From the NCBI GenBank assembly GCA_029432775.1, contig JAROAZ010000006.1, positions 62,001-126,000 of the forward strand: a DNA stretch of 64,000 nucleotides. The letters run 5' to 3'. Under the pieces are notes generated by a model, which saw only the letters and a list, made by a program, of their open reading frames with translations, was not told the DNA's origin and searched no databases. Both the position numbers and the translations under genes were made by a program. Shown here in pieces: positions 2,447 to 62,030 of the stretch. The stretch is from Pontiellaceae bacterium B12227. Its GTDB lineage: Bacteria > Verrucomicrobiota > Kiritimatiellia > Kiritimatiellales > Pontiellaceae. Position 1 is the stretch's first letter. Each line of letters opens with the position of its first letter.

Positions 2447-5278
2447 TCAAGGCGCTAACCTGACGCGGTAGAATTGCACCGGTGATGCCGTCTGATTGGT
2501 ATCCGCCCAGTAAAAAGGAAGAACCGGCGAATGGAAGTTAGACACCGAAGTCCAACCGCCCGTCAGGTTCGTGGTCGTCTGAATGGTGTAGTCCGGGCCG
2601 GCATCCCCATCGACTGAAAAGCTAAATTGACCGTTGGTGATTACAGCGGAACTGAGCGTTGGCTCGGCGGGGCGCGCAACCGTTACATTGAAGCTCCGGG
2701 TTGTTCCAAGCATTGGAACTCCGTTGTCGGAAACAGCAACAGACACGGTCTGCAAGGACGGTGATTGCGAAATAAGCGGACGCCATGAAAACGCCCCGTT
2801 CGTGGAATTGATCGAAGCCCCAACAGGCGGGCTTTTCAAACTATAGGTGAGGGTTTGTACCGGCACATCCGCATCGCTCGCGGAATGGGTCAGCATCAGG
2901 TTGCCGCCGGCCAGAATCATCTGATCAGAAATCGCATCAGCCACCGGTGCCGCATTAAGATCCACATTGTCCACGATCGCAGTAGCGAGCGATCCATTGT
3001 TGTGACTGGTCACAGCCAGTCCGATGTTGACCGCTTGTGACATGTTCACAGTCTGGCTGCCTCCAACCTGAGTCCAGCTTTCACCATCTTCGGAATAGTA
3101 GCCTCGGAAAATATTCGCCGAACGCACGAGCCGCACCCAGCACGGAGCACTCAACCCACCGGCATTAGCGGTGCCGGTGCCGCCCCCCGTGGCGTTGCGC
3201 CATTGGAAGGTTACGCCATTCTCAGGGGTAACCAGCACCGCCACATTCATGGCATTGGCCGCCGTTCCCTGACGCATCATGATGCCTGCCTTGGCCCATG
3301 GATCGGTATTTTCCACATGCATCACGCGGGCCTGTATCGCACAATCACCGCTAATGACTTGATGCGTGTATCGGAATCCATCTGCCCCGCCCTGAATATC
3401 TTCGCCGGAGCCGGCCAGGAAAAAGGTGTCGCCCATAAAGCTCGCATTTCCTGCCAAACCGACGGCTCCAACATCCTCCGATGTCCACACCCCCGGCAAT
3501 GCGTTGGCCACCGAATAGACCGCATAGCCCCGTGGAGGTGCCTGCACGGTCACGATCCCGCCGGCACTGCAGGACACATTGACAGGCTGTGTGTTTTGCC
3601 CGGCAACATAGGAATACCAGGCATGGCACTGAAGCGTTTTCCCCGCGAGAAATGAATTGGATGTCGTCACGGTCGCGCCCTGCGTTGTTGAGTCGTGGTT
3701 ATTGAGTACGACGATGTAGCCGGGGGTGCTGGCCGAGCCGTTCGAGGTCCCGTAGATGAGCACATCGGTGCTGTTGGTGTTGAGCAGTTGAATATCCGGC
3801 TCTCCTCCGCCCAACGCTCCGCGCACCCACACCAACGGTTTGATTCCGTTGCCGGACTGCCCGCCCAGGGTGGCGAGGCCCCGATCAAAATAATCCTTCC
3901 AGAAAATGCAGGGGTATCCCTGGTAGGTCAGGATAAAGGCATAGGCGAGCATGGTGTTATTGGTGATCGATTCAACGCCGGCATCTTTGTCGGTATCGTG
4001 ATTGGCCACGAAGGTGACGGCATTGGAGGGGCGCCTGGCGGCGTAGACCTTCGTGGGATCGACCAATCCCGAAATACCGGCACCCTCATTGAACACTTCT
4101 CCCATGGTGTAAAAAGCGGGGAAGTCGAAGGCGGAGCTGTTGCCTGAATATTTTACATAGGACTCGATGACCTCCATGTTGTCCCAGCATTCGAGAATCC
4201 CGAAGGCGTTCCCGGTGCCGACTCGGAAATCCGCCATGAAAGAAGGATGGATCCCTTTGACATAATCAAAACGCCAGCCGCCGTCAAAACCGGCATGGGC
4301 GGAATCCTGCAGCCAGCCGCCCCACTCCGTCAGATCATAATAGGCAGATCCCGCCGAGTGACCCGTAACGTGGCAGACGTCGGGATACGTACCGAACGAA
4401 CCTTCATCGCTCGACTCATAGTTCGACGGATGGAACTGGTTATAGTCCCAGGTACACTTGCCGCTTGCCACACCGCTGAAGTCGGTCCATGAATTTGTCC
4501 CGCCGAGATGGGGATTGGACTCCGCCATCCCGCCGGAGCGATGGTTCAGTACGAGATCAGCCATGCAGAGGATCCCCTGTGCCTGATAAGCCGCAATAGT
4601 GGATTTTAATTCCGCCTGCGTACCGAAATGAGTAGGGATGGTTCCTTGCTGATTATATTGTCCCAGATCGTAGTAGTCGTAGGGGTCGTACCCCATTGAA
4701 AGTCCACCGGAGTCGCTCTTTTGCGGCGGTGGAAACCAAATCCGGTCGATACCCTGCCCGCCCTGCATGAAGCGCAGCTCGGCGGCGTTGGCGGCCATCG
4801 TGCTGTACCATTCCGAAGGGCAGTCCCAGTAGAACCCCTGCATCATGACGTTGGCCTTGCTGGCAGTGGCGGGGAGCGGCGGCGGAGTTCCAATGGTTGG
4901 AACAGGTATGGAGAAATTCCAGTCAGCCCCTCCGTTGGAATCCCATATTTCACTGCCGTTGTGGAAGGCATAGTTGAGTGTATCGGCCATTTGCGGACAT
5001 AGATAAGTATAGGTCCACCATCCATTCGAGAGGACCATCGATACATCGTCGGACTGCGCCCAGCCATTGACTCCCTTGTGGAGCTGGACGGAACCGACAC
5101 CATCCAGCGGACCGCCCGCAGGATTGTAGGCGACCGTTACCAGGTGACCTGCCGACGGCAGAACCGGACTGATTGTGCAGTCCGATGCACCGGCCCCGGC
5201 CGCAAAGAACATCGAAAGACATACCACGGAAAACAAAACGTTCATCTTCCAATGACTGGATGTTAATCGCGATTTCAT
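2447..5278 (-). CDS. Secreted multidomain alpha-amylase (starch-binding-like domain + GH13 + accessory domains)
   Basis: 943 residues. Order seen: signal peptide (about 1-31); a beta-rich N-terminal module (about 33-127) with PAGGPLDG, GWWTYTY and NYAFHNG, resembling CBM25/CBM26-type starch-binding modules; a short Pro-rich linker; a GH13 alpha-amylase (about 143-595) with nucleophile Asp338 (GGWRFDYVKG), acid/base Glu363 (GILECWD) and Asp428 (FVANHDTDKD); a DUF1349/concanavalin-like module (about 600-775, with GADGFRYTH, KAGIMMRQ and SEDGESWTQVG); a cadherin/He_PIG-like Ig domain (about 785-865); and a C-terminal beta-sandwich domain. Expected to degrade starch extracellularly or in the periplasm while held on the substrate by the extra modules. 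Two strict TTCCAANNNTTGGAA copies sit in the linker (4888) and the Ig domain (2704); a degenerate one lies in the signal-peptide codons (5247). Confidence 0.88.
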   Translation of the reverse strand: MKSRLTSSHWKMNVLFSVVCLSMFFAAGAGASDCTISPVLPSAGHLVTVAYNPAGGPLDGVGSVQLHKGVNGWAQSDDVSMVLSNGWWTYTYLCPQMADTLNYAFHNGSEIWDSNGGADWNFSIPVPTIGTPPPLPATASKANVMMQGFYWDCPSEWYSTMAANAAELRFMQGGQGIDRIWFPPPQKSDSGGLSMGYDPYDYYDLGQYNQQGTIPTHFGTQAELKSTIAAYQAQGILCMADLVLNHRSGGMAESNPHLGGTNSWTDFSGVASGKCTWDYNQFHPSNYESSDEGSFGTYPDVCHVTGHSAGSAYYDLTEWGGWLQDSAHAGFDGGWRFDYVKGIHPSFMADFRVGTGNAFGILECWDNMEVIESYVKYSGNSSAFDFPAFYTMGEVFNEGAGISGLVDPTKVYAARRPSNAVTFVANHDTDKDAGVESITNNTMLAYAFILTYQGYPCIFWKDYFDRGLATLGGQSGNGIKPLVWVRGALGGGEPDIQLLNTNSTDVLIYGTSNGSASTPGYIVVLNNHDSTTQGATVTTSNSFLAGKTLQCHAWYSYVAGQNTQPVNVSCSAGGIVTVQAPPRGYAVYSVANALPGVWTSEDVGAVGLAGNASFMGDTFFLAGSGEDIQGGADGFRYTHQVISGDCAIQARVMHVENTDPWAKAGIMMRQGTAANAMNVAVLVTPENGVTFQWRNATGGGTGTANAGGLSAPCWVRLVRSANIFRGYYSEDGESWTQVGGSQTVNMSQAVNIGLAVTSHNNGSLATAIVDNVDLNAAPVADAISDQMILAGGNLMLTHSASDADVPVQTLTYSLKSPPVGASINSTNGAFSWRPLISQSPSLQTVSVAVSDNGVPMLGTTRSFNVTVARPAEPTLSSAVITNGQFSFSVDGDAGPDYTIQTTTNLTGGWTSVSNFHSPVLPFYWADTNQTASPVQFYRVRLAP
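2704..2718. repeat. TTCCAANNNTTGGAA palindrome
   Basis: TTCCAAGCATTGGAA, inside the Ig-like domain of the multidomain amylase, where it encodes VPMLGT on the minus strand. Confidence 0.85.
4888..4902. repeat. TTCCAANNNTTGGAA palindrome
   Basis: TTCCAATGGTTGGAA, in the linker between the N-terminal module and the GH13 domain (VPTIGT on the minus strand). Confidence 0.85.
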
Positions 5279-13737: not shown

Positions 13738-16700
13738 ATGGAAATACCATTTTCACCACCCGCTTCGCTAGAGACACAGAGACACAGAGGCTTGCTTTCT
13801 CCGTACCTCCGTGCCTCTGTGGTGAAAAAAGTCATGTCACTCCTTGGCCTAGGTCTTGTTCTGACCGGTGGAGTTTCGGCGCGCGACTGGATCGACCGGG
13901 CATGGAAAGGCGACGTCATCTATTTTGTGATGACCGACCGCTTCAGCGATGGTGATCCGGAGAATAATATTCCAGAGGGTTCCGATCCTGCGTTGTACGA
14001 TGCTGCGCAACAGAACATCAACCTCTACCACGGCGGCGACTTCCGGGGATTGGAAAATGCGCTGACCGACGGATATTTTACAGACCTTGGAATCAGTGCC
14101 ATCTGGATTACGCCGCCGGTGCGCAACGCCTGGATGTCGCAGCACGACCTCGGCGGCAGCAAGAGCGGCTACCACGGCTATTGGACCCAGGACTTCCGCG
14201 ACATTGATCCGCACCTGACGAGCCGAACCGACTTGGCCGGCAAACCCTACCCCGCCGGCACTGCGGGCCGGCTCCAGCACTACAAAGACCTCATCGACCT
14301 CGCCCATTCAAAAGAGATCAAGGTGGTACAGGACATCGTCTGCAATCACATTGGCCCTCTCTTCTACTATGACCTCGACAGGAATGGAGCACATGAAAAC
14401 AACATCGATGAGTGGCAGCCGCCCTACCTCCCGGATGGAACCTATCGGGATGCCGCACGCTGGGCAAACGAGCCGCAGTGGAACGTGGGAAAACCCGACG
14501 ATTTTTTCCAATCATTGGAACTCTACTGGGCCAGGGGCTTCAGCCCGGACAGTCTGGGGAAAAGCGATGGAGAGGAACAGCGGTGCGACTTCTTTTCGTT
14601 GCGCGCACTCAATACAGAGCCGGAGGCCGCGCACTTCGACCGGCTCGTCGATGAGTTTGTCGACATCTACCATTTCTACATTGATGAAATGGGCGTAGAC
14701 GGCCTGCGCATCGATACGGTCAAGCATGTGCACAAAGACTTCTGGAACGCCTTTACCTCCCGCCTGCGCGAGCGGCTGGGCCCGGACTCCGACAAGCTGC
14801 TCCTATTCGGCGAGGTGTATGGCAACTCCATTGAAGACATAAATTACTATGCCGACAGTCTCGATTCCCTGCTCAACTTCCAGTTCACCTGGGCTGTGCG
14901 CGATGTGTTGCGGCAGGATAACCGGGGCGATGTTAAACAGCTCGCTCGCTTTATCGAACGAATGAATAACGAAGTAAAAACCACGGGCAACTATGACGCC
15001 AAGGCCATGCGCCTCAACTCCGTCAACTTCATCGGCAACCACGACGGACTGAATCGCTTTCTGGTGAATGGAATCAGCGAAGCGAATCATGATCTGGCCC
15101 TCGCAACTCTACTGACCTTCGAGGGCATCCCCTGTCTCTACTATGGTTCCGAACTCGCGATCCGCGATGATCAGGTTGACCGGCACAGGGAGAGCGAAAC
15201 CGGGCGGGCCACGTTGTTTGACAATCAGGGCAGGCGCACCTTTGAACAGCGCAAATCCAACCCACACTTCAAAATGATTTCTGAACTGATTACCCTGCGC
15301 AAGCAGCTGCCCGCACTGGTCGATGGCGATATCAACGTATATCCGCTGAACAAAGACGGGGTGCTGGCCTACCGGCGCGGCAATGCGTTAGTCGTGTTCA
15401 ATGCAGGTGATCAGCCAAAGCAGTTTTACATTCCCGCCACAACCCTGCTCTATTCAAACGGAATAGTCGAAAACTCGAAACCAGACAGACCATGCACGGT
15501 TCCTGCAAAAACCCTGCAGGTCTACCGCATGGAGGAGAAAACAACTATGCAATCGGCAACCGGGGGCAAAGCGGTCATTTATCAGGTTTTCACGCGCCTT
15601 TTCGGCAACCGCAACACCACCAACAAACCATGGGGCACCATCGAAGAAAACGGCGTTGGAAAATTCAACGACTTTACCGATACCGCGCTGGAAGGCATCA
15701 AGGAATTCGGCACCACCCACATCTGGTATACCGGTGTGCCGCACCATGCCGTCGTGCGTGACTACACCGGCTTTGGCATTTCAAACGACGATCCCGACGT
15801 GGTCAAAGGTCGCGCCGGCTCGCCTTACGCCGTGAAGGACTATTACAACGTAAATCCCGACCTGGCCGCAAACCCGGCAAAGCGATTCGAAGAATTCCAA
15901 GCACTCATCGACCGAACTCATCAGCACGGCATGAAGGTGATCATCGATATTGTCCCGAACCATGTGGCCCGCGCCTACTACTCCACCACACGGCCCGGCT
16001 GCGATTTCGGCATTCATGATGACACGGACAAAGAGTATCAGCGCAATAACAACTTCTACTACATCGTCGACGAATCCTTCCGCGTGCCGGAAGGCGAGGT
16101 TCCTTTGAATGGCGAAGCGCATCCACTGGCCGACGGCCACTTCGACGAAACCCCGGCCAAATGGACCGGAAACGGTTCACGGCTCGCACAGCCAAACCCG
16201 AATGACTGGTATGAAACCGTCAAGGTAAACTACGGCGTCCGCCCCGATGGAACACACGACTTCCCGGCCCTGCCCGAATCGCTGCGCGGTGCCTCGTTTA
16301 AAGAACACGCCGATTTCTGGGCCGACAAAGAGGTGCCTGACTCGTGGATCAAGTTTCGCGACATCGCCCTCTACTGGCTCGACTACGGCGTCGACGGATT
16401 CCGCTTCGATATGGCCGAAATGGTGCCGGTCGAATTCTGGAGCTACATGAATTCCTCCATCAAAATGGAGAAAGCCAAAGCATTCTGTCTGGCCGAAGTC
16501 TATAACCGCAATCTCTACCGCAACTATATCCAGCTCGGCCTGATGGACGCGCTGTATGACAAGGTCGATTTCTACGACACCACCAAACGGATCATGCAGG
16601 GTCGCGCCCCTGCCTCCGACCTGCTTCCAATCATTGGAAGTCTCAGCGACATCGATCCGCACATGCTCCACTTTCTCGAAAACCACGATGAACAGCGTAT

Positions 16701-17327: not shown

Positions 17328-17476
17328 TTCCAATCATTGGAAAAACAGTCCCTGTCGGAGGGCGGCGCTTTGTCGCCGCCGGCGCTGACGAAGCAGCGCC
17401 CTCCATTAAAAATGACAGAACGGGCCCCGAGGCCTCCCTCTATTTTCCAACCATTGGAATTTTCCATGGATTGGAA
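17328..17476. repeat. Convergent spacer with three TTCCAA palindromes and a REP-like hairpin
   Basis: Between the convergent double amylase and response regulator genes lie TTCCAATCATTGGAA (17328-17342), TTCCAACCATTGGAA (17445-17459) and a one-mismatch copy TTCCATGGATTGGAA (17462-17476). Between them a 48-base imperfect palindrome (17357-17404), beginning GGAGGGCGGCGCTTTGTC and ending GACGAAGCAGCGCCCTCC, can fold into a strong GC-rich stem and may act as a two-way terminator or REP-type element. Confidence 0.75.
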
Positions 17477-18118: not shown

Positions 18119-21100
18119 TCCGCCCCCGGTATCGGTGCCTGCAGGCGGACGGTGGTTCCTTTCCCTGCTTCGCTATCGATCGTGCACGTTCCATTCAATG
18201 CACCCAGACGTTCCTGCATATTCACGAGCCCGTCTGCACCGGCTTCCCGTTTACCGGAACCAAAGCCTGAGCCATCGTCGGTCACAATAACGGTCAGCTC
18301 ATCGTTCTGAACAAAAATACGAAGCCAGACCTTGTCGGCTCCGGCATGCTGGATCACGTTAGCCAACGCTTCCTTGAAGGCCAGGAATATGCTTCGACGG
18401 AACCGGGGGTCCAGTGTAACATTCGGTAGTTGCTCGGCCACATCCAGGCCGCAATTTATCGAAGCAAGTTCCAGCAGCCGCTGGGCATAGGCTCCAAAAT
18501 AACCGGCGAGAGAAGATACGGTGTCATTGCGCGGATTCACCGCCCACACAATTTCATCGAGCGAGGTCACCATGTGCAAGGCGATGCCACTCAGCTCTTC
18601 GGCATATTTCTTTTTTTCCTCATCGGAATTGAAGGGACTCTTAACCAACGAAGCCAACATATTCACTTCGGTCAACCGGGCTCCGAGGTCATCATGGAGA
18701 TCATTCGCCAGGCGGGCTCTTTCCTGCTCCAGCTCACGTTCGTGCTCGGCATGCTGGCGCTCGTGGATTTCGTTTTCTAATTGCTCAGTCCGGATTTCCA
18801 CCGTCCGGCGCAACAGTTTAATCCAGACCAAAGCGCCCAGCAGCACCGCGGCAAGCAGGCCGACCACGTTCAGCATGCGCTGCAGGGTCCACCAGGGCGG
18901 GCGCGACAGAACAACGATTCCTGCATCGCTGTTGAGCAAAATTCTGAATGAGCTGATCGGCTGCCCCATGATGCGGTTTCCGCCCAGACCAACGTACACT
19001 CCAGTCAACTCAAGACGGCTGCCGGGCACCCAGGCCTCGGCATCCTGCTCCCCTTCCAGTTCCGCCACAAATCGGCGCAGCCCGTTCTGCATTTCAAGTA
19101 CAAGCTGGTCATCATGCTTACTGACTTCCAGCAACACCCCTTCGACCTTCACATACGTTGCATCATACTCATCGCGCAGGAGGTCCGGGGGCTCCAGCGG
19201 GTTCGGCGGCGGGAGTTCCGCCTGCTCGGTTGTTCTAACCATGGCTTCCTGCAACACGGGGGTTCCACTTCCCAGCGAGAGAAAGCCCGCCACATCCACC
19301 ATATCTCCAACCTCGGCATCAATGCCGTTGGCCGGAATAAACTTCAACCCGCTGTTCCCATCCATCAGACAACAGAAGTCGTTCCCTTTCTGGATGAGGA
19401 GCCCGTAAACCCTCACCCGCTGCAATGCGCTCGCCTCGGGATCATAAAGAAGCAGGTCATCCACCCGTTTGTATCCCACTCTGAACGGGTCGTCGGGCGC
19501 GGGCTGAACCACCGTAATCCAGTGTTGGTCCAAAAAGATGGATCCCACAATAACGCGTCGCAGAAAACCGTCCCAGTCCGCACGCAGACACCCGCGCAGG
19601 CGGACCGTTGCACCAAGAACCTTTTCCGGCATGGGTGTGCCGTCTGGATTCAGCCTGACATTGATGCGCCCTCCCCGGGTCAGCAACGTGACTCGGTCCC
19701 AGTCTTCGAAAACAACCACGCCCTCTAATTCCACATAGTTGCAGTGCAGACTGCCGTTAATCAACTGATCCCATGACGGCTCAACGGGCTCCGGAAGGCT
19801 GGCCGCTCCAAGAACCTCAACCCGAGTGGCATCAATGTAGGGAGAGAAACGATAAGGCCCCGTGGTTCCTTCAATTTCGCAATAATCGCCGACCTGCAGA
19901 TTAACGGGCCCGCCCAGAGCCACATAGATTCCGCGCGATGAGTCCTGCAGGACCGCGCCGTTGTCTTCCATGGGACTGGTGATCACACCGCGGACCTTAA
20001 CCGGATATCTGCGGGAAGACTCTTCAAGGCTGAGTTCAAAGATCTGGTCAATCGTCGTGAGCACCGGGAGATTGTTGGTGTCGCCCGCCGTCCCGACGTC
20101 GGCAGGAATATTCTGCAGTTCAGGATATTCCAACCGTTGGATAAAAAATTCACTACGCACCCAGCGGCCTCCGGCATTGCGAATACGTCGGCCGACGCCC
20201 GCAACACGGATTTGACTGTGGAGTTCCGGTTGTTCAGTGCTGTCGGCCACATTGGCGCGCACCAATCCGGCTTCGGTCATCAGCTCTACTTCGTATGCTG
20301 TGGCTGACTGGTGAACCGCCACAACACGCCCTTCGATTTCCAACCATTGGAACTCCGATTCTGCAGTGGAGGCGCCATGGGTAGCCATGGGCAGCGGCCC
20401 GCTCCCCTGCGTGGAGATCTTCAGCGTAGACGGCCCGACAAACAAACGGCTGCCGTCATCGGACTGCAGATAAAAGGTATAGTCACCTGCGCGCGGCACA
20501 TTGAGATAACCGGAAAACTGTAGACCAACATGGTTGTTCCGTGTTCTGACAGCGATATCAAAGTTGGTGGTCGTTCCGGAAATCACGGAGGCCAGATGGT
20601 CGCAGTTGGGCAGCAGGCGCCACCACTGGCCTTCAAAGCATTGGTAATTCAATCCGTGTATTGCATTCGTCGCACCGACAGCCGCTTCATCCAGGTTCAG
20701 GTAAAGCTCGCCATCCGGAATGGTTTGCCGTGGAATTCCCGGCCCTTCATATGCCACGTCCAGCCCGAAGATTTCCGTCCGGTTGAACCAGGCCACCTGA
20801 ATGGGATGCCGGCCGGCTTCCAGATAAACGTTGCCGGACTTTTCATCTATTGCATGAAGACCATTATTTTCAACAACAGGAACGGACGACAGCACAATGG
20901 CATCTCTTGATTTCACCACCGCGCACTCGCCCTCAATACGCAACCGGTCGCCCTGCTCCGGCATATCGCAAGGCAGACTCAGTTCCAGCAGCAGAGTTTC
21001 ACCTTCATCATGAAGGATAACCCGCCCTTCCGCGGCACTGGACCAAAGGACGGTTCCATCCAGCTGTATGGAAATATTACGGGGATTATGTGCCTCCGAC

Positions 21101-24400: not shown

Positions 24401-27400
24401 TTCGGCACAGAGAAGACCGGTCTTAAAGAGGGCTATCATGTGCTTCGAACCAAAGCTTTCCTGAACCGCGGCGGCGCGGCTTCGCTTTTCAACCTGAATG
24501 TCCGGACGTTCTACTACGACACCAAACGGCCCGAAGGCGAAATCATCTACCCGGGCAGCGACGGCGACACGCTGTTCGGCTCCACCTATGGATTCGTGGT
24601 CCGCAGCGATGAAAGTGTGGAAGAGGTCTGCTACCGGATCACCGACAGTGATGCCGGCAACGACGATACCGCAACCGGTGTCGACCAGGGCAACGGCACC
24701 TGGATTCCCGCACTGACCGTCGATACCAGCCTGGCTGTGGACTCGGACTACCCGCAGGAATGGCGCTTTGACTACAACAATATTCCAGCCTCAGGAACGG
24801 CACAGATCGAAATCCGCCTGAAGGAAGCCTCTTCCTCCACCAACAATGCACTCAGCGATGCCGACGGTCACTACACCACGCTGGTGCGCAACGTGAACAC
24901 CAGCGGGCCGGATGTACGCTTCTTCACCGCCTGGCCGCAACAGGACGGCGAAACCGTCGGGCCGGATTATGTGGCAAAAATCCACTTCTCCAAGTCACTT
25001 GCCGTCGGCCTTACCGAGGAAGAACTGCTGAACACCCTCACCCTGAGCATCGATGGGGTTTCCCAGCCGCGGTCGGACTATTCCATCCTCTACAACGAGA
25101 CCTCCGACTACCACGCGCTGGCCTTCACCATGGATAACTATTTCAATAACGTGGCGGACTACCAGCACACGCTGGAAGTGCTCTGCAACCGCGATGGCGA
25201 GCCGCTCCTCACCGCCAGGCGCATCTTCCTTTCCTATCCGATCATTGAACCCTATGTGAATGTTGTGACCCCTCCGCTGACCGACGAGCTGGGCGATCCG
25301 TTCCGCATCGTCCTCCCGGATGTTGCATCCCCGGTTGCCACGCAGCGACAGTACACGGTCTATATCGAAACGGACACCGATGCACAGAACGTTGCGATGG
25401 CCTTTGAACAGGGTAGCGGAATGCTTACCGAAGACGCCGGCAACCCCGTCAGCAACAGTAATTATCTCGGATGGAGCTTTACCTGGAATTTCCCGCTTAC
25501 CAATGATGCTGCGCAGATTGAAGGCACCTTCCGGCTCCGCGCCGATGTCGACACCGACGGCAATACCAATACCGTCGAAGCCACCGCCCTCCGCGAAGCC
25601 CGGGTCATCCTGCGCGAAATCTCGAACGTGAGCACGAACGATTTCGACGACGATGATGACGGCCTTTCCGACTTCGACGAAATCACGCCGAAAGCTCTTC
25701 CCACCACAGCGGTTACCGAGTGGGTCAACAGCGATGTCCATGCCTGGAACATCTACGGCCTTACCGATGCAACCAGCCCCGACACCGACGGCGACGGACT
25801 GCCCGACGGACTCGAATCCGGCTGGCGTCTCCCGGCGGATACCAACGCCACACTCACGACCACCGATACCAACGGCGACGGCTATCCCAACTTCATTGGC
25901 GACCTCGACCCGCCCTTCTATAACACCTTCGACAACTATGGACTGGTACCCGGCGTTTCAACCTACAGCGCTGGCACCAAAACCGACCTGAAGGCCGGCA
26001 CCATGACCGATGCCGCCAACCCCGACACCGACTACGACGGACTGCCCGACGGACTGGAAGATGCCAACCGCAACGGCTGGGTGGACGGCGATGGCGAAGC
26101 CATCCCGCCGGACTGGAATCCGTGGCTCGGGCGCGACTGGCCGGACGGTTCGCTGGATGGTAACGATGTCTGGCTCGAAACCGACCCGAACAACGCCGAT
26201 ACCGACCAGGACGGACTTAGCGACGGCTACGGGGAAGACCAGAATGCCAACGGCATCATTGACGGCGACACCAACGGCGACCGCCTCTACACTGCCGGGG
26301 AAGCCTGGCAGGAAACCGACCCGCTCAACAGCGATACCGATGCCGACGGCCTGCCCGACGGATGGGAAGTCACCTATGGCTTCAACCCGCTCGATAACGG
26401 CACGGACGATCTGAGTACGGCCTCGGCCACCGACGGCGATCCGCAACAGGGCGCCGCCGGGGATGTGGATAATGACGGGACCAGTAATCTTGAAGAGCTG
26501 ATTAACGGCACCAACCCGCAGGTTCCAGACTCTGGAACTCCGCCGCCACCGCCCTCCATCGTGATCGGGCCGCAGGATGAAATCGTCGTTGGCGCGGTTG
26601 CAAACGCACAGGAATTCAGCGACTGGAACGACGAGGACCTGATTGCACTCGATACCTATGACGAACTGGAATCCACCAGCGGCGGCGACGTTTACTATCG
26701 CTCCTGGGCCAGCGATGGGTTGGAATCTTCGCGCGATATGCTCGCCTTCTATGCGCAGGACGGCGGATCCATCTCGAACGGCGGCGACGGCAACTTCTAT
26801 TTCCGCCTGGACATGATGGACCTCGTGGCCAATGCCGAAGAGAGCGGGCTGGATATCTATGTCGTCATCGACACCGGCAACACCGCCATCGGCGAACGGA
26901 AAATAGTGGACAACATTGATGTCCTCACCGACATGCGTTGGGAGGCGGTTGTAGCCGTATACGACAGCGACAACGGGGCGGTATATGTCAACCAGCCGGG
27001 CAGTGCAGACACCGACACACTGGAAGACACCATTGTCTACGACCCCACCGATGTCGACCGGCGTACACAGGCTCATGCCGACGGATTCAAACAGGCCTAC
27101 TTTAACTCAGAGCTCGACTCCATTGAATTCTCCATCAGCCGGCAGGCCCTGATCGACACCGGATGGAACGGGAACTTTGCGCAGCTCAATTTCCAGGTTT
27201 TCACCACCCGCGACGGCACGGACGGCGGCGATGGCGAGCTGGACGGACCGGACATTCAGGATTCGATTCGCACCGACTGGATTGCTGAGGATTTCTCCGG
27301 CATTACCAGCGGCGATGTGGACCAGCTGCGCTATGACGCACGCATCGAGCTCGAATCGCTCGTGCAATGGGTCGGTATCAATGCCGACAACGACCGCGGA

Positions 27401-31432: not shown

Positions 31433-32602
31433 TTAACGATTCCGCCTTTTCTGCCCGCTTCGTCGTTGTTTACCGGCATGCTCTCGCCGGTCCGGACCGC
31501 GGCGGCGCGCCCCCTGCCCCTTCGGCGGTGCTTCCAAGGTTTGGAAACCGTCCTTTTTGCCGCACCGTTTCGCAACACTGGAAACCGCGAGGCGGGCCGT
31601 GGCAAAGGCTGCCTGCAGGTTGTAGCCGCCGGTCGGACCGTCCACATCCATCACTTCCCCGGCAAAATAGAGTCCGGGGCAGACCTTCGATTCCAGGGTC
31701 TGGAAATCAATCTCATCGAGGGCCACGCCACCGACTGTTACCATGGCTTCTTTGATGGAGCGGGTGTTGAGCGGCCGGATTTCCTCAGACTTCCCGTCGA
31801 GCAGGTTGACCTTCAGCACATAATTTTTGAGATCGTGGCGGGCCACGATACGGGAGGCATCGGTGAGGGCCGTTCCGCCGACACCCCACTTTTCAATTTC
31901 GAAAACGCCGCGCGTCTGGCCGACCACGTTTCCTTTGGAGAGCACGTCGACGGTGACCTTTTCATAGATTTTTCCCACACGGCCCTGCAGGACCCCGGGC
32001 TCGACTTCAAACCCGGCGAGTCCCGGCCGGAAGGCTTCCACTTGATGGCCGAGTTTTTTTGCCCAGTCCTGGCCATCGCCGACAGAGCCGGTTTTCGGAT
32101 AGCTGACGCCGCCGGTGGCAATGAGCACATATTTGCTCTCCACCACAAAGTTATCGGTGGTGACCCGGAAGCCGTTCTTTGTTTTTTCCAATGCCTGGAC
32201 CACGGAGGAACAGGCGAGAGAGACATTGCGGTCGCGCAGCTGATCGGTGAAGAGGTTGAGCACATCGGCCGCCCGTTCCGTATGCGGATAGACTTTATTC
32301 CCTGTCTTTACGACCGTCTTCAGCCCGTGGGCTGCAAACCAGCGTTGCGACATGGATGGGGTAAACGCTTTCAGAGCCGGTTCGAGAAACGGGCCCACCG
32401 GATCGCCGAACATCTGGACCATCCGGTCTTCAGAAATATTGGTGGTCAGGTTGCAGCGGGAGTTCCCGCACATCAGCAGTTTCCGCCCCGGTTTGGCTTT
32501 GCGTTCCAGCACAAGCGCCTTCAGGCCCAGTTCGCCGGCGGCGCAGCCGGCCATCAGTCCGGCAGCTCCTCCACCGATTATAATCAGATCCGTTTTACTC
32601 AT
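31433..32602 (-). CDS. HI0933/BaiN-family flavoprotein (NAD(P)/FAD-dependent oxidoreductase)
   Basis: 389 residues. N-terminal dinucleotide-binding motif IIGGGAAGLMAG (about 7-18), then LERKAKPGRKLLMCGNSRCNLTTN, the hallmark of the HI0933 flavoprotein family; ATGGVSYPKTGSVGDG about midway and a C-terminal FAGEVMDVDGPTGGYNLQAA that completes FAD binding. The cellular role of this family is poorly defined; related proteins act on bile-acid or aminoacetone substrates, and I would not assign a substrate here. The last 30 or so residues are basic and low-complexity (GARRRGPDRREHAGKQRR), an extension beyond the usual family end. Two strict palindromes (31532, 31691) fall in the coding sequence as FQTLE segments. 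Confidence 0.85.
   Translation of the reverse strand: MSKTDLIIIGGGAAGLMAGCAAGELGLKALVLERKAKPGRKLLMCGNSRCNLTTNISEDRMVQMFGDPVGPFLEPALKAFTPSMSQRWFAAHGLKTVVKTGNKVYPHTERAADVLNLFTDQLRDRNVSLACSSVVQALEKTKNGFRVTTDNFVVESKYVLIATGGVSYPKTGSVGDGQDWAKKLGHQVEAFRPGLAGFEVEPGVLQGRVGKIYEKVTVDVLSKGNVVGQTRGVFEIEKWGVGGTALTDASRIVARHDLKNYVLKVNLLDGKSEEIRPLNTRSIKEAMVTVGGVALDEIDFQTLESKVCPGLYFAGEVMDVDGPTGGYNLQAAFATARLAVSSVAKRCGKKDGFQTLEAPPKGQGARRRGPDRREHAGKQRRSGQKRRNR
31532..31546. repeat. TTCCAANNNTTGGAA palindrome
   Basis: TTCCAAGGTTTGGAA near the 3' end of the flavoprotein gene (FQTLE on the minus strand). Confidence 0.85.
31691..31705. repeat. TTCCAGNNNCTGGAA palindrome
   Basis: TTCCAGGGTCTGGAA in the flavoprotein gene (FQTLE on the minus strand); a weaker copy TTCCAATGCCTGGAC lies at 32186-32200. 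Confidence 0.8.
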
Positions 32603-33228: not shown

Positions 33229-34016
33229 TGATGCTGCAGATCTCACTGGTCCTTCTGGTCCTCCTGGCCATTGCGGGTATTTTCCTGCTGCGGAAAAGAG
33301 CGAATGAAAAGCATCTGCTGACGCTCCGCACCACCCCGCCGCCGGCCGACTGGCTCCCGATTCTGGAGCAGACTCTTCCAATGGTTGGAAAACTTACTTC
33401 CGAACATTGGAAGCAGCTCAGCGGCCTGATGAATGTGTTCCTGCACACCAAACACTTCGAAGGCTGCGGCGGACTGGAACTGACCGAGGAGATGAAAGTT
33501 ACCGTGGCGGCACAGGCCTGCATGCTCCTGCTCGGGCGGAACACGGAGGTTTATCCAAAATTAAAAACCGTGCTGCTCTATCCGCACACCTATACCGATG
33601 GCGAAACGGCCCGGCTCGGCGAATCCTGGAATATCGGCGTGGTGGTGCTCTCCTGGAACAGTGTGGTCGGCGGTGCCCGTAATTTTGCGGACGGGCATAA
33701 CGTGACCTTCCACGAATTTGCCCATCAGCTCGACCAGGAATCGGGCGCGGCCGACGGCGCTCCGATTCTGGGAGAAACCAATGCCTACCAAACCTGGGCC
33801 CGCGTGTTCAGTTTTGAATATGAAGATCTCGTTGAAAAAACCGAGCATGGCCAAAAAGATGTGATGGATGAATACGGCGCCACCAACCCGGCCGAATTCT
33901 TTGCCGTCGCCACCGAAACCTTTTTTGAAAAACCGAAGCAGATGAAGCAGAAGCATCCCGAGCTCTACACCAAACTGCGCGGGTACTATAAAGTGGACCC
34001 GACCGAATGGATATAG
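33225..34016 (+). CDS. MtfA-like zinc-dependent peptidase
   Basis: 263 residues. A short N-terminal transmembrane helix (about 4-22) is followed by an M90/MtfA-type metallopeptidase domain. The zinc motif HEFAHQLD starts at His163, with His167 as the second ligand; downstream NPAEFFAVATETFFEKP is the family signature containing the third ligand and stabilising Glu. In E. coli MtfA binds the repressor Mlc and thereby affects glucose phosphotransferase genes, but that partner is not seen here. The gene overlaps its upstream neighbour by 4 bases and the signal peptidase gene by 10. A strict palindrome (33376) and a one-mismatch copy (33398) lie in the region encoding LPMVGKLTSEHWK. Confidence 0.86.
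   Translation: MMMLQISLVLLVLLAIAGIFLLRKRANEKHLLTLRTTPPPADWLPILEQTLPMVGKLTSEHWKQLSGLMNVFLHTKHFEGCGGLELTEEMKVTVAAQACMLLLGRNTEVYPKLKTVLLYPHTYTDGETARLGESWNIGVVVLSWNSVVGGARNFADGHNVTFHEFAHQLDQESGAADGAPILGETNAYQTWARVFSFEYEDLVEKTEHGQKDVMDEYGATNPAEFFAVATETFFEKPKQMKQKHPELYTKLRGYYKVDPTEWI
33376..33412. repeat. TTCCAANNNTTGGAA palindrome plus a near copy
   Basis: TTCCAATGGTTGGAA (33376-33390) and TTCCGAACATTGGAA (33398-33412) in the MtfA-like gene. Confidence 0.85.
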
Positions 34017-35086: not shown

Positions 35087-35101
35087 TTCCAGGGATTGGA
35101 A
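35087..35101. repeat. TTCCARNNNYTGGAA palindrome filling a convergent gene junction
   Basis: TTCCAGGGATTGGAA; with flanking bases it extends to TTTTCCAGGGATTGGAAAA (35085-35103). The two converging genes end at 35083 and 35105, so the palindrome is the whole intergenic spacer. Confidence 0.85.
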
Positions 35102-37922: not shown

Positions 37923-38807
37923 ATGCCACTCTCTAAATCTCTTCGCTACAGTCTCATGGCGGTCTTTGCCTGCCTGCTGTGGTCGTCCGCCTTTGTGGCC
38001 GGCAAGCAGGCCCTGGAATACCAAACGCCGCTCAACCTCGCCGGCACCCGCTTTCTGTTGGCCGGCCTGTTGCAGCTCCCGCTCTGCGGCCATCTGCTGG
38101 CCCCGCTTCGACTCATCAAAAAAGAGTTTTTGACCGTTCTGCTGGTGAGCCTTTTTCATACCGTCTATCTTTATTCCACCTTCTTCATTGGCCTCAGTTG
38201 GGTGAACGGAGCGGAAGGCGCCATGATGATCGGGGTCGGCCCGCTGGCGTCGGCCCTGATGGCACACGTTCTGATGAAAGACGACAAGATGCAGCCGCGC
38301 CTGCTTTTCGGCATCCTGCTCGGCATGTCCGGCGTCGTATTTGTCAGCCTGGCTTCCAATCCCTGGAACCCGGAGGGGCTGAAAGAATTTTTCGGGCTCA
38401 TGCTGTTGCTGAGCGGCGCCTTTGTTTCAGCCATTGGAAATGTAGTGGTGGCCAAACGGAAAGGCGGACTGCATCCGATTGCACTCAACAGCGCCCAGAT
38501 GCTGCTCGGTGGAGCGCTTCTTCTACTGATCGCCCTGCCCTTTGAAGGAGTACCCGCTTTGAACCTTCCGGCGGCGTACTATGGAAGCCTGCTCTGGCTC
38601 GCCACCATCTCGGCCACGGCCTTCGGCATCTGGTTCTTCCTGCTCAGCCGCGTGAAAGTGTCGCGATTGAATCTTTGGAAGTTTCTGATTCCGCTGTGCG
38701 GCTCGGTGCTCGCCTGGCTCTTTATCCCCGGCGAATCACCCACCTGGCCCAGCCTCGTCGGCATGGTCCTGATCGTGATCGGCATCATCGTCGGGCAGAA
38801 GAAGTGA
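37923..38807 (+). CDS. EamA/DMT-family transporter
   Basis: 294 residues from ATG 37923. The frame extends to a TTG 30 bases earlier, inside the preceding gene, which is unlikely to be the start. About ten hydrophobic helices in two EamA repeats; the first starts SLMAVFACLLWSSAFVAGKQALEYQTPLNLAGTR, the typical repeat opening, and the second contains ISATAFGIWFFLLSRV. Members of this drug/metabolite superfamily export amino acids or other small metabolites; the substrate cannot be told from sequence. A strict palindrome TTCCAATCCCTGGAA (38354-38368) lies in the loop between the repeats. Confidence 0.88.
   Translation: MPLSKSLRYSLMAVFACLLWSSAFVAGKQALEYQTPLNLAGTRFLLAGLLQLPLCGHLLAPLRLIKKEFLTVLLVSLFHTVYLYSTFFIGLSWVNGAEGAMMIGVGPLASALMAHVLMKDDKMQPRLLFGILLGMSGVVFVSLASNPWNPEGLKEFFGLMLLLSGAFVSAIGNVVVAKRKGGLHPIALNSAQMLLGGALLLLIALPFEGVPALNLPAAYYGSLLWLATISATAFGIWFFLLSRVKVSRLNLWKFLIPLCGSVLAWLFIPGESPTWPSLVGMVLIVIGIIVGQKK
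38354..38368. repeat. TTCCARNNNYTGGAA palindrome
   Basis: TTCCAATCCCTGGAA in the EamA transporter gene. Confidence 0.8.
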
Positions 38808-39451: not shown

Positions 39452-40084
39452 TTAAGCAGGAAAACGCGGGGCAATGAAAACCGGCGGGTGCATGTAGAGC
39501 GGTTCAAACGTTTCCGACTCAATGCCGTTTTCCAAACGTTGGAAAACCAGCTCGCCGAGTTTTCCAGCCATTGGAAACTTCGGTTCTTCCAAGGCCTGGA
39601 AACCGGCCAGCAGCTCTTCGAGCCGATCATGATCCGGGCTGACCACCAGCATTCCCTCCGGCACAAAGGCCTTCAGCTCATCGCGCTCCATCAGTTCAAA
39701 TTCCTTTTCCAGTTCGCTGCCGGAAAAGAGGCCGGCCCAGACTTTGTTGCGGCGGGCATCGCCGACAATGGCCGTTTTCTCTGCTCCGATCTGCGCAGCC
39801 AGTGCCGCGCCGCTGTTAAGCGCATAAACCGGTTTCTTCAGCGGGGCGGCCAGTGTATTGATGACTGTAAAGCCGATACGCATCCCCGAAAAGGCCCCCG
39901 GTCCGCGGCCGACCGCGAAGACATCGACGCTGTCCCAGTCCGATTCCAGCTCCGACATGGCATCAAACAGCTGCTGCCGGTTTTTAAAATTCTCTTCCCA
40001 GCTCATTTCGCGGATCACCTGACCGTCTTCCAGCACCGCAATGCTTCCGAAGCGGGAGCTCAGTTCAATGGCAAAAATCTTCAT
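39452..40084 (-). CDS. tsaB: tRNA threonylcarbamoyladenosine biosynthesis protein TsaB
   Basis: 210 residues. Opens MKIFAIELSSRFGSIAVLED, the ASKHA-fold start of TsaB, and has VGRGPGAFSGMRIGFTVINT (about 58-77), the family signature. TsaB is the scaffold that joins TsaD and TsaE in making the t6A37 modification of ANN-reading tRNAs. The C-terminal third, poorly conserved in the family, contains three palindromes within 72 bases that encode FQALEEPKFPMAGK and VFQRLE. Start overlaps the stop of tsaE by 4 bases. Confidence 0.93.
   Translation of the reverse strand: MKIFAIELSSRFGSIAVLEDGQVIREMSWEENFKNRQQLFDAMSELESDWDSVDVFAVGRGPGAFSGMRIGFTVINTLAAPLKKPVYALNSGAALAAQIGAEKTAIVGDARRNKVWAGLFSGSELEKEFELMERDELKAFVPEGMLVVSPDHDRLEELLAGFQALEEPKFPMAGKLGELVFQRLENGIESETFEPLYMHPPVFIAPRFPA
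39530..39601. repeat. Cluster of three TTCCARNNNYTGGAA palindromes in tsaB
   Basis: TTCCAAACGTTGGAA (39530-39544), TTCCAGCCATTGGAA (39562-39576) and TTCCAAGGCCTGGAA (39587-39601), the densest group in the window. Confidence 0.88.
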
Positions 40085-47558: not shown

Positions 47559-47960
47559 ATGAAGAAGCTCCTCTTTTATGAAAAAACCGGTTGCAAGGGA
47601 AACGCCCGCCAAAAAGCCATCCTCGAAGCTAACGACTACACCCTTGAGGTAAAATCATTGTTGGACGCGGACTGGGGGCGCGATCGTTTGCGCCCCTTCT
47701 TTGGCGACCGGCCCGTGTCGGAGTGGTTCAACTGGAAAGCCCCGGCCATTAAACAAGGCGAGGTTGATCCATCGTCTTTCAATGCTGAAAACGCATTGGA
47801 TATAATGATTCGCGAACCGATATTAATCCGCCGCCCCCTCATAGACATGAATGGAACGAAGATGTGCGGCTTTGACGACGAAGTGCAGGCGTTGTTGGGA
47901 ATCAATGAAAGTTTCCAGGGGCTGGAAGCCTGCCAGAATAGCCGGGAGCGCTGCGATTAA
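47559..47960 (+). CDS. ArsC/Spx-family nitrogenase-associated protein
   Basis: 133 residues. Thioredoxin-fold ArsC family: LLFYEKTGCKGNARQKAILE with a single active-site Cys12, then DRPVSEWFN, REPILIRRPLIDMNGTKMCG and FDDEVQALLG. This is the pattern of the nitrogenase-associated ArsC-like proteins (NifO-like) found in nif clusters, which differ from arsenate reductases in lacking the full catalytic arginine set. A strict palindrome (47913-47927) overlaps the end of the gene (FQGLE). Confidence 0.82.
   Translation: MKKLLFYEKTGCKGNARQKAILEANDYTLEVKSLLDADWGRDRLRPFFGDRPVSEWFNWKAPAIKQGEVDPSSFNAENALDIMIREPILIRRPLIDMNGTKMCGFDDEVQALLGINESFQGLEACQNSRERCD
47913..47927. repeat. TTCCAGNNNCTGGAA palindrome
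   Basis: TTCCAGGGGCTGGAA at the end of the ArsC-like gene; the only strict copy between 41224 and 52503. Confidence 0.85.
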
Positions 47961-50550: not shown

Positions 50551-50596
50551 GCCTTGGTCCCATGCAATTCCACCGTCCCTTCGGCATACGTTTACT

Positions 50597-52264: not shown

Positions 52265-52272
52265 GCGGGGAC

Positions 52273-52474: not shown

Positions 52475-52563
52475 AATGTCGAAATTTAGTTAACCCCCTG
52501 CTTTTCCAAGGGTTGGAAAAGTGACCCTTCCAACCATTGGAACTCCCGGAAATATTTTTCCGG
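52475..52563 (+). promoter_or_regulatory. Candidate upstream activating module of nifE
   Basis: AATGTCGA (52475-52482), strict palindrome TTCCAAGGGTTGGAA (52504-52518), a second strict palindrome TTCCAACCATTGGAA (52528-52542) and CCGGAAATATTTTTCCGG (52546-52563). Order and spacing match the nifH leader: 43.5 bases between the centres of the last and first palindromes in both, and about 112 bases to the -24 box. Confidence 0.6.
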
Positions 52564-52688: not shown

Positions 52689-52703
52689 TTCCAACCATTG
52701 GAA
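52689..52703. repeat. TTCCAANNNTTGGAA palindrome in the nifE leader
   Basis: TTCCAACCATTGGAA between the sigma-54 promoter and ATG 52711, covering the place where a ribosome binding site would be expected; the hairpin could affect translation of nifE. Confidence 0.85.
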
Positions 52704-60917: not shown

Positions 60918-62030
60918 ATGGATGAACTAATGAAAACACCCTATTTAATTGATACCACCCTGCGCGACGGCGAACAGATGCCGGGTGCCGTTTTTACCCG
61001 CGATGAAAAACTCGCCATCGCGCGCCGGCTCGCCAAAACCGGCGTCGGCGAAATTGAAGCCGGCATTCCCGTAATGGGTCCAACGGAACAGGCCGACATC
61101 CGCGCGGTGCTTGAACTCGGCCTGCCCTGCCGCATCACGGGCTGGTGCCGCGCGGCCCGGGCCGACCTCGACGCCGCCGAGGCCGCGGGCCTCGACTCAG
61201 TTCACCTCTCCTTTCCAGTTTCCGGCCACCACTTCCAGGCATTGGAAAAATCGGAGGACTGGGTTTTCCAGACCCTGGAAAAAATCCTGCCGGAAGCGCG
61301 TGAGCGGTTTGCGTTTGTATCGGTGGGTGCGCAGGACTCGGGCCGGGCCGACCGCTCCTTTCTCAACCAATTTGCCCGCGGCGTTTACGAACTCGGAGCA
61401 GACCGCTTGCGGATTGCCGATACCGTAGGCGTACTGAACCCATTCCAAACGCGGGCACTTTTTGAAGAGCTCCACGCCGCCGTGCCGAAGCTGGAACTGG
61501 CCTTTCATGCCCATAATGATCTCGGCATGGCCACGGCCAATACGCTGGCCGCCTTTGAGGGCGGTGCGGCGGCGGCCGATGTGACCGTGGCGGGAATCGG
61601 CGAACGCGCCGGCAACGCCGCGCTCGAACAGGTGGCGATGGCGGTTCCTGCCCTTGGAATTCCAACCACCGAACTGACCCCGCTGTGCGATGCAGTCCTC
61701 CAGGCTCTGGAACTCCCGGTGCCGGCCTGCTTTCCAATCATTGGAAAAAATGTATTCAGCCATGAATCGGGCATTCATGTGCACGCGGTGCTGAAGCACC
61801 GGTCCGCCTACGAACCGTTTTCCGCCGCGGATATCGGCCGCACCGATTCAACAACTGTGGTGCTGGGTATTCATTCCGGCGAAGCGGCTCTGCGCCATGC
61901 GCTGAATGAATTGGACATTAATCCGGGACAGGAATCCCTTGGCTGGCTACTGAAACGGGTCCGGAATCATGCACAGCAAACCAAGAAGCCGGTCACACCG
62001 CATCAGCTGAAAATGCTTTTTTATGAGTGA
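60918..62030 (+). CDS. nifV: Homocitrate synthase
   Basis: 370 residues. DRE-TIM metallolyase: IDTTLRDGEQMPG near the start (metal ligand and catalytic Arg/Asp), then HAHNDLGMATANTLAAFEGG (metal His pair) and VAGIGERAGNAALEQ; GKNVFSHESGIHVHAVLKH is the C-terminal signature. Condenses acetyl-CoA with 2-oxoglutarate to homocitrate, the organic ligand of FeMo-co. ATG 60918 gives MDELMKTPYLID; the ATG at 60930 is an alternative start. Three strict palindromes lie in poorly conserved segments (FQALEK, FQTLEK, FPIIGK). Confidence 0.95.
   Translation: MDELMKTPYLIDTTLRDGEQMPGAVFTRDEKLAIARRLAKTGVGEIEAGIPVMGPTEQADIRAVLELGLPCRITGWCRAARADLDAAEAAGLDSVHLSFPVSGHHFQALEKSEDWVFQTLEKILPEARERFAFVSVGAQDSGRADRSFLNQFARGVYELGADRLRIADTVGVLNPFQTRALFEELHAAVPKLELAFHAHNDLGMATANTLAAFEGGAAAADVTVAGIGERAGNAALEQVAMAVPALGIPTTELTPLCDAVLQALELPVPACFPIIGKNVFSHESGIHVHAVLKHRSAYEPFSAADIGRTDSTTVVLGIHSGEAALRHALNELDINPGQESLGWLLKRVRNHAQQTKKPVTPHQLKMLFYE
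61233..61280. repeat. Two TTCCAGNNNYTGGAA palindromes in nifV
   Basis: TTCCAGGCATTGGAA (61233-61247) and TTCCAGACCCTGGAA (61266-61280). Confidence 0.82.
61732..61746. repeat. TTCCAANNNTTGGAA palindrome in nifV
   Basis: TTCCAATCATTGGAA (encodes FPIIGK); a one-mismatch copy CTCCAGGCTCTGGAA lies at 61698-61712. Confidence 0.85.

What the first reader, a model, noticed from the sequence alone, without database searches (positions are those of the whole stretch)
2704..61746. Highly iterated 15-bp interrupted palindrome TTCCARNNNYTGGAA across genes and spacers
By eye I find 25 exact matches (starts: 2704, 4888, 14506, 16625, 17328, 17445, 20338, 26523, 29770, 29799, 31532, 31691, 33376, 35087, 38354, 39530, 39562, 39587, 47913, 52504, 52528, 52689, 61233, 61266, 61732) and at least a dozen one-mismatch copies. 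With ten fixed and two two-fold positions, chance gives about one per 4.2 million positions, or 0.015 in this window. Copies occur in all reading frames and encode different peptides (FQxLE, xNHWK, VPMVG, QPLE), so selection is on DNA or RNA, not protein. In the Ig-like domain copy the surrounding protein pattern looks unbroken, suggesting substitution rather than insertion. Candidate roles: a highly iterated palindrome like HIP1 of cyanobacteria, a nucleoid or segregation site, an uptake or modification signal, or a widely bound regulator site. I know of no described function.
Basis: partly seen in the sequence, partly recalled or inferred. Interest (0 to 1): 0.85.

Follow-up and report, generated by a model that had tools for sequence, protein, structure and literature searches.

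The report
Genome-wide palindromic DNA-binding site array
A little-studied class of bacteria carries hundreds to thousands of copies of one 15-letter mirror-image DNA word, often set exactly two or three helix turns apart, which looks like the landing sites of an unidentified protein that coats or organises the chromosome.

Summary
The window holds 25 exact TTCCARNNNYTGGAA (0.01 expected); its 6.3 Mb genome holds 2106, against 3 for the reversed control. Strong enrichment was seen only in the window's class, Kiritimatiellia by record titles, and ranges from 1 to over 2000 copies between congeners. Genic copies differ from relatives by in-register substitution. Positions are kept in G001, the closest relative compared: 17 of 20 aligned sites exact, about 2.6 expected; in G009 11 of 22, with only 2 of 9 in the second region.

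In other families the site forms intergenic arrays spaced 31/32 or 22 bp, three or two helical turns; two phage contigs carry such arrays. Several lineages use TTCCAY..RTGGAA almost exclusively. Half-sites vary independently within genomes, against a hairpin.

Best reading: sites of a symmetric, cooperatively binding, class-specific protein of nucleoid or global-regulator type, in mode like Lrp; tests do not support Lrp itself. The binder is unidentified. Phasing is not significant in the window's own genome taken alone. No description was found in the open-access library searched.

The parts
2704..2718 (.). exact site TTCCAAGCATTGGAA, inside predicted gene 2447-5212 (-)
4888..4902 (.). exact site, inside predicted gene 2447-5212 (-)
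14506..14520 (.). exact site in alpha-amylase-like gene (13738-17316 +); G005 has in-register different sequence, G010 aligns with gaps
16625..16639 (.). exact site in the same gene; in-register substitutions relative to G010, compensating small gaps relative to G005
17328..17342 (.). exact site, convergent intergenic region
17445..17459 (.). exact site, convergent intergenic region; one-mismatch copy follows at 17462
20338..20352 (.). exact site in histidine-kinase-like gene 18115-21327 (-)
26523..26537 (.). exact site in the 2812-aa amylase/GH57 ORF 21482-29920 (+)
29770..29784 (.). exact site in the 2812-aa ORF, 29 bp before the next
29799..29813 (.). exact site in the 2812-aa ORF
31532..31546 (.). 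exact site in predicted gene 31433-32602 (-)
31691..31705 (.). exact site in predicted gene 31433-32602 (-)
33376..33390 (.). exact site in M90-peptidase gene 33225-34016 (+); one-mismatch copy at 33398
35087..35101 (.). exact site filling the convergent gap between 35083 and 35105
38354..38368 (.). exact site in predicted gene 37956-38807 (+)
39530..39544 (.). exact site, cluster of three (32 and 25 bp apart) in predicted gene 39452-40084 (-)
39562..39576 (.). exact site, same cluster
39587..39601 (.). exact site, same cluster
47913..47927 (.). exact site in predicted gene 47559-47960 (+)
52504..52518. exact site, intergenic by the gene finder (an ORF 51976-52524 overlaps it), 24 bp before the next
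52528..52542 (.). exact site, intergenic
52689..52703 (.). exact site just upstream of a nitrogenase-component-1-type gene (52711-54060 +)
61233..61247 (.). exact site in HMGL/homocitrate-synthase-like gene 60918-62030 (+), 33 bp before the next
61266..61280 (.). exact site, same gene
61732..61746 (.). exact site, same gene; one-mismatch copies at 61645 and 61698

Best explanation
The palindrome is the double-stranded DNA binding site of a symmetric (dimeric) sequence-specific protein found in many, not all, lineages of the class Kiritimatiellia. Each half-site (core TCC within WTCCRR) is read independently. Where sites lie two or three helical turns apart (about 21-22 and 31-32 bp) neighbouring dimers sit on one face of the DNA and bind cooperatively, possibly wrapping or bridging it. 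Because sites occur in genes and in all kinds of intergenic regions, keep their places in the closest relative compared, and look sparse in some acquired-looking DNA, the likeliest role is chromosome organisation or very broad regulation by a nucleoid-associated-type protein. Shown: enrichment, class restriction in the genomes searched, in-register substitution, positional conservation against G001, helical spacing in other members of the class, near-absence in some congeners, a half-site specificity switch. Inferred: that a protein binds it, that binding is cooperative, and what it does. Not known: which protein.
For: 2106 copies against 3 control; in 387 phylum genomes no genome of another class exceeds 16. 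Positional conservation: 11 of 13 and 6 of 7 exact G000 sites exact in G001 (control all-arm identity 0.098 and 0.19), 9 of 13 and 2 of 9 in G009 (0.083 and 0.146); in the first region arm identity is 0.95 in both against 0.76 background, with the middle at 0.74/0.62. Neighbour spacings: 31/32 in 25 of 26, with one at 29, in 100 kb of G048; 31/32 in 16 of 16 in G057 stretches chosen around listed sites; 13 of 14 within 1.5 bp of a multiple of 10.5 in 220 kb of G032 (4 expected; p at the floor of 5e-5). 64 of 288 class genomes have triple arrays at 31/32, reversed control 0 in every row. Two phage contigs have 9 and 11 sites (up to two mismatches) at 22, 31, 32 or 42 bp. The switch TTCCAR to TTCCAY is almost exclusive per genome (e.g. 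G275 3 R/Y, 129 Y/R; same-genus G288 110 R/Y, 0 Y/R). In G000 positions 6/10 and 7/9 are no more complementary than re-paired half-sites (151 against 149; 63 against 72). Array flanks in loci chosen for arrays: tandem 113, divergent 21, convergent 19, within a gene 24 (no formal control).
Against: No binder identified. In the window's own genome, spacing taken alone shows clustering (70 pairs within 120 bp against 28 Poisson) but not significant 10.5-bp phasing (23 of 64 within 1.5 bp against 18 expected, p 0.29; G027 p 0.72), so cooperativity is argued from relatives. The pooled phase test is driven mostly by G032, and in its one-mismatch set a period of 11 fitted slightly better than 10.5. 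G009 keeps only 2 of 9 sites in the second region, where arm identity (0.80) equals background. In family f8 arrays are not stable: of three G048 array positions compared, one was partly kept in one congener and two were not. In G057 arrays belong to a longer dispersed repeat. Lrp, the family whose known spacing fits, did not co-vary by eye with the switch or the losses.
Confidence: 0.6

Rival explanations
1. HIP1-like methyltransferase/repair-driven palindrome: an orphan DNA methyltransferase recognises the site (perhaps inner CCAN5TGG) and a methylation-coupled repair bias creates and keeps copies; the Y/R form would reflect another methyltransferase.
For: Copy number, spread by substitution, presence in genes and lineage-specific alternate palindromes all parallel HIP1 and 'alternate HIPs' with cognate methyltransferases (passages of PMC4390886, abstract included).
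Against: Arrays at two/three helical turns are not explained. A5, the adenine of CCA, is among the most tolerated positions (A to G in 53 one-mismatch sites), which speaks against m6A there; cytosine methylation is not excluded. No methyltransferase search was run.
Confidence: 0.16
2. DNA-uptake or recombination signal (DUS/USS-like) enriched by molecular drive.
For: Thousands of copies in genes and spacers, near-match tail, few copies in some acquired-looking stretches.
Against: Palindromic, so without orientation; helical-phase arrays and arrays in phages; in some families almost purely intergenic (33 of 34 in G048). Competence genes were not examined.
Confidence: 0.07
3. REP/BIME-like mobile palindromic repeats moved by a Y1 (RAYT-type) transposase.
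For: Intergenic arrays with regular spacing in several families; in G057 arrays share spacers and flanking sequence. Y1_Tnp matches are somewhat commoner in the motif-bearing genomes I listed (46 of 48) than in the motif-poor ones (24 of 32), uncorrected for kinship and genome size.
Against: In the window's genome copies in genes are in-register substitutions. Half-sites do not pair better than chance within a genome. No Y1_Tnp match in motif-bearing G057 and G191, and matches in most motif-poor genomes.
Confidence: 0.07
4. The Lrp/AsnC protein of the class is itself the binder, as a global regulator/nucleoid protein.
For: Lrp sites are spaced two or three helical turns centre to centre (passages of PMC2995911). 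The 20 listed genomes without an Lrp match (of 23) have no triple arrays.
Against: Lrp is present in many motif-free families (123 of 146 genomes). The HTH is much alike in motif-rich and motif-poor congeners and has no residue tracking R/Y versus Y/R (by eye). No 22/31-bp array lies in the roughly 3 kb around the gene in 32 loci; 7 of the 32 have scattered sites.
Confidence: 0.08
5. RNA or ssDNA hairpin (terminator, attenuator, RNA-stability element).
For: The sequence can fold as a 6-bp stem with a 3-nt loop (by inspection); some G048 arrays directly follow stop codons.
Against: Positions 6/10 and 7/9 do not co-vary within a genome; centre conserved as G/C; no flank bias evident. The pooled multi-genome set does show excess 7/9 pairing (163 against 105) and slight 6/10 excess (244 against 237), which I attribute to mixing genomes with different base preferences.
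Confidence: 0.02

Closest known systems
HIP1 (GCGATCGC) and alternate HIPs of cyanobacteria
   Same: Highly iterated palindrome; replaced by another palindrome in some lineages; a cited title says it propagates via substitutions (PMC4390886, passages).
   Different: 15-bp interrupted palindrome with variable middle; helical-phase arrays; phage arrays; no methyl target shown.
Lrp/AsnC-family operator sites (e.g. Ss-LrpB, FL11)
   Same: Dimer sites two or three helical turns apart on one DNA face, wrapping (PMC2995911, passages); 5-5-5 layout of the Ss-LrpB site (recalled).
   Different: Thousands of near-perfect copies, where the review passages call natural Lrp sites quite degenerated; this class's Lrp does not track the motif.
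REP/BIME elements with RAYT transposases
   Same: Intergenic arrays of regularly spaced palindromes (PMC2817692, abstract start in search listing).
   Different: Here found inside genes by substitution; no hairpin covariation within genomes; transposase family only weakly linked.
NrdR and ComK boxes (recalled, no call)
   Same: Palindromic boxes set whole helical turns apart.
   Different: Few sites per genome; different sequences.
DNA uptake sequences (DUS/USS)
   Same: Very high copy number in genes.
   Different: Non-palindromic, oriented; no phased arrays (recalled).

Membership tests
Highly iterated palindromes (HIP1 type) | palindrome far above expectation genome-wide, in genes and spacers | tested here: met
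Highly iterated palindromes (HIP1 type) | arises by nucleotide substitution | tested here: met
   (15 of 106 aligned cells had a gap in or near the site)
Highly iterated palindromes (HIP1 type) | cognate DNA methyltransferase for an internal sequence | not tested
   no methyltransferase search or methylome; A5 tolerates G, which speaks against m6A at CCA
Lrp/AsnC regulon sites | centre-to-centre spacing of two or three helical turns | tested here: met
   met in relatives, phages and G032; not significant in the own genome alone
Lrp/AsnC regulon sites | Lrp presence and DNA-binding helix track the motif | tested here: not met
   (helix compared by eye)
Lrp/AsnC regulon sites | site bound by Lrp | not testable with these tools
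   needs protein and DNA
REP/BIME | extragenic, mobile insertions | tested here: not met
   172 of 245 sites in genes in G000; in-register substitutions. In G048 33 of 34 are intergenic, so the first half is met there
REP/BIME | hairpin pairing conserved | tested here: not met
   no excess within single genomes; excess in the pooled class set
REP/BIME | RAYT transposase in the genome | tested here: inconclusive
   Y1_Tnp in 46 of 48 motif-bearing and 24 of 32 motif-poor genomes
DNA uptake sequences | preferential uptake | not testable with these tools
   needs experiment
DNA uptake sequences | non-palindromic, oriented | tested here: not met
   the pattern is its own reverse complement
Nucleoid-associated-type binding sites | genome-wide sites in genes and spacers, kept in place by selection | tested here: met
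   (strong against G001, mixed against G009)
Nucleoid-associated-type binding sites | an abundant protein bound to them | not testable with these tools
   no binder identified

The most novel reading that the evidence does not exclude
Kiritimatiellia have an undescribed sequence-programmed chromatin: an unknown dimeric protein reads a 15-bp palindrome at up to two thousand places, polymerises or wraps DNA in units of 31.5 bp where sites are arrayed, and has changed its recognition of half-site position 6 in several lineages, each time with a rewrite of the genome's sites; phages of these hosts carry long arrays to exploit or resist it.
Probability: 0.33. Interest if true: 0.95.

Novelty: new variant of a known kind. 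Interest (0 to 1): 0.8.

Why it matters
As far as I recall, few bacterial site families combine this copy number, this length of consensus, helical-turn arrays and repeated specificity switching. It offers a natural experiment on how a global DNA-binding protein changes specificity when hundreds of sites depend on it. It also gives a concrete handle (a cheap oligo bait) for a nucleoid protein of a class that has cultured members (abstract of PMC7356697 in the listing). I found no description: in the open PMC library, searches found no paper, one search found 4 unrelated ones, and the 20 papers listed of 989 and of 695 did not concern it. Subscription papers and preprints are not held.

Tried and rejected
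Alternative palindromes in motif-poor congeners: none strong in 196 kb of G004 and 161 kb of G018, so loss rather than switch there. Lrp as binder: co-occurrence and HTH covariation not supportive. RAYT: at most a weak link, 46 of 48 against 24 of 32; the odds of that rival are left as first written because the link is uncorrected for kinship and genome size. Genes next to residual or class-wide arrays: no recurrent regulator; the best recurrences were sulfatase-, fucosidase-, beta-helix- and PheS-like genes in up to four loci each, judged by eye from the sequence. Viral contigs as a source of the binder: phage arrays upstream of a terminase-like gene, no candidate binder. Conservation of arrays in family f8: mostly not kept. 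A first ortholog script returned no alignments and was repeated with other BLAST settings. Not tested: methyltransferases, competence genes, NrdR, any tree. Gene predictions come from a home-made ORF scorer, so gene/spacer counts are approximate. The helical-phase p values assume uniform spacings. The stretches read for one search were picked because they were sparse. Papers: PMC4390886 and PMC2995911 read as passages only; all others seen only as search listings.
Full report
OBSERVATION. The 25 starts are correct and complete (25 exact, 0.01 expected). Up to two mismatches there are 65 against 10. In the whole genome (6,294,789 bases, 206 contigs) there are 2106 exact sites, and 3 for the pattern read backwards. 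In 379 kb of this genome TTCCA-N5-TGGAA occurs 122 times against 1.8 expected; no unrelated half-site palindrome comes close. The logo of 118 symmetrised sites shows little information beyond one base either side, so the copies are not parts of a longer repeat. In 245 sites from 777 kb the dyad base is G or C in 227; one-mismatch sites show a hard core T2-C3-C4 and tolerance for T1 to A (55) and A5 to G (53).

WHERE THE SITES LIE. By a home-made gene finder 172 of 245 sites in the own genome are inside genes, 70 are intergenic and 3 span an edge: 0.25 per kb in genes and 0.81 per kb between them, all codon phases, all gene orientations. In the window 19 of 25 are in genes. Counts per 20 kb are over-dispersed (variance/mean 2.1 in 34 bins). 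I read four of the sparsest bins: one low-GC island with an integrase-like gene has 0 sites, two sulfatase-bearing stretches 0 and 1, and a stretch with prophage-like genes 1 (gene labels by eye). This suggests, but does not show, that acquired DNA is poor in sites.

HOW COPIES ARISE AND PERSIST. Against relatives G005 and G010 the window's genic sites align largely in register with different bases; two of the alignments (site 14506 against G010, site 16625 against G005) contain small gaps. In a syntenic 20-kb region (L044) compared with 12 congeners, 106 site-by-genome cells were aligned; 15 had a gap in or within 3 bp of the site and 27 kept an exact site. By genome, exact G000 sites also exact: G001 11 of 13, G009 9 of 13, G027 4 of 12, G024 1 of 12, G023 1 of 9, G012 1 of 6; G005 0 of 11, G025 0 of 8, G021 0 of 8, G004 0 of 6, G018 0 of 4, G014 0 of 4. 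The chance of all ten arm bases agreeing elsewhere is 0.05-0.10. Arms are more alike (0.95) than the middle (0.74 and 0.62) in G001 and G009. A second region (L098) gave G001 6 of 7 (control 0.19; arms 0.94 against 0.82) but G009 only 2 of 9 (control 0.146; arms 0.80 against 0.80). So positions are under selection at least between G000 and G001; the G009 evidence is mixed.

DISTRIBUTION. Counts within the genus (own genome and 27 others) run from 1 to 2106. In 387 genomes of the phylum no genome of another class has more than 16 (that one with control 2), while in the own class several families reach hundreds or more and others are at chance. Contig lengths tie G424 to 'Kiritimatiellae bacterium FR_21', and G048, G201 and G057 to MAGs titled Lentisphaerae (two) and Verrucomicrobia. 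The class name is inferred from these titles.

ARRAYS AND HELICAL SPACING. In 100 kb of G048 neighbours lie 31 (19), 32 (6) or 29 (1) bp apart; in G057 stretches chosen around listed sites 31 (8) or 32 (8). Triple arrays at 31/32 occur in 64 of 288 class genomes, reversed control 0 in every row. f20 genomes mix 22 and 30-31. In 220 kb of G032, 13 of 14 spacings of 16-100 bp lie within 1.5 bp of a multiple of 10.5 (4 expected, p at the simulation floor of 5e-5); in G000 23 of 64 (18.1 expected, p 0.29) and in G027 5 of 14 (4.0 expected, p 0.72), neither significant. The pooled test over five genomes (exact sites n 36, R 0.42, p 0.0015 at 10.5; one-mismatch n 85, R 0.28, p 0.001 at 10.5 and R 0.32 at 11) therefore leans on G032. 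G000 does show clustering (70 pairs within 120 bp against 28 Poisson) and one array of six at 30-32 bp (L252). Array contexts in 163 loci chosen for arrays, some overlapping or from the same genome: tandem 113, inside a gene 24, divergent 21, convergent 19. Two phage contigs, found by an array pattern, carry 9 and 11 sites (up to two mismatches) at 22, 31, 32 or 42 bp upstream of a terminase-like gene. A terminase search returned these two and two more, of which one has a single exact site and one none; the own genome's prophage-like stretch has three exact and one one-mismatch site at the same place.

SPECIFICITY SWITCH. TTCCAYNNNRTGGAA is enriched in genomes poor in the R/Y form: G115 298 (R/Y 1), G139 259 (2), G261 211 (2), G297 200 (4), G366 175 (1), G096 151 (4), G275 129 (3), G050 83 (3). 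R/Y genomes have almost none: G134 462 R/Y, 1 Y/R; G288 110, 0; G393 106, 1; G120 178, 0; G048 1764, 1; the own genome 2106, 12. Two more Y/R genomes (G451 156, G454 83) were not counted for R/Y. Both forms occur within families f9, f14 and f20 and within genus g51, so at least three changes are implied if families are monophyletic (no tree was built). Motif-poor congeners G004 and G018 show no substitute palindrome in the DNA examined.

DNA OR RNA. If stems mattered, inner partners should match. In G000 complementary 6/10 pairs number 151 against 149 expected and 7/9 pairs 63 against 72; G027, G032, G048, f20 and the Y/R set show no significant excess. The pooled class set shows an excess at 7/9 (163 against 105) and a slight one at 6/10 (244 against 237), which mixing genomes with different preferences would produce. 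This favours two independently read half-sites, as for a dimer on double-stranded DNA.

CANDIDATES. Lrp-type proteins place dimers two or three helical turns apart and wrap DNA (passages of PMC2995911). Lrp is in 123 of 146 class genomes including motif-free families; the 20 listed genomes without it have no triple arrays. By eye its helix-turn-helix does not follow loss or switch, and in 32 loci no 22/31-bp array lies around its gene, though 7 have scattered sites. So 'works like Lrp' is kept and 'is Lrp' is not supported. Y1 transposase matches are found in 46 of 48 motif-bearing and 24 of 32 motif-poor genomes, at most a weak link. HIP1 is the nearest named phenomenon (passages of PMC4390886) but, as far as those passages show, lacks phased arrays; its defining methyltransferase link was not tested here.

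VERDICT. A real, strong and, as far as my searches show, undescribed genome-wide site family. The binding-site reading is well supported for the class as a whole, less directly for the window's own genome; its protein and purpose are open.

Noticed in passing
G108 (another class of the phylum): The reversed control pattern (AAGGTYNNNRACCTT) has 55 copies and the motif none: possibly another iterated palindrome in an unrelated lineage.
   Followed up: no
window 13750-13828: Up to about 80 bp at the start of the amylase-like gene matches many places in 13 other genomes of the genus at 72-94% identity; may encode a shared leader such as a prepilin-type signal (by recall).
   Followed up: no
window 43275-63815: Nitrogenase-component-type genes (43275-44912, 52711-54060), a homocitrate-synthase-like gene and a sigma-54 activator suggest a nif cluster.
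   Followed up: partly
window 7032-29920: Starch-utilisation cluster: alpha-amylases, MFS transporter, GH77, and a 2812-aa ORF with amylase and GH57 matches.
   Followed up: partly
window 48001-52000: GC falls to 0.46 and there is no exact site between 47927 and 52504: possibly acquired DNA.
   Followed up: no
L114:16124-L115:2060 (own genome): Prophage-like stretch whose genes resemble viral contigs L257/L258, with motif copies upstream of the terminase-like gene as in those phages.
   Followed up: partly
L086, L089, L323: Arrays upstream of a PheS-like gene (by eye) in three loci.
   Followed up: no
G015:C98, C99, C250: Y/R-form arrays near the starts of three contigs of a motif-poor congener: possibly contamination from another family.
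   Followed up: no
L052 and L055 (G057): Arrays share spacers and about 45 bp of downstream sequence, so here they are copies of a longer dispersed repeat.
   Followed up: partly
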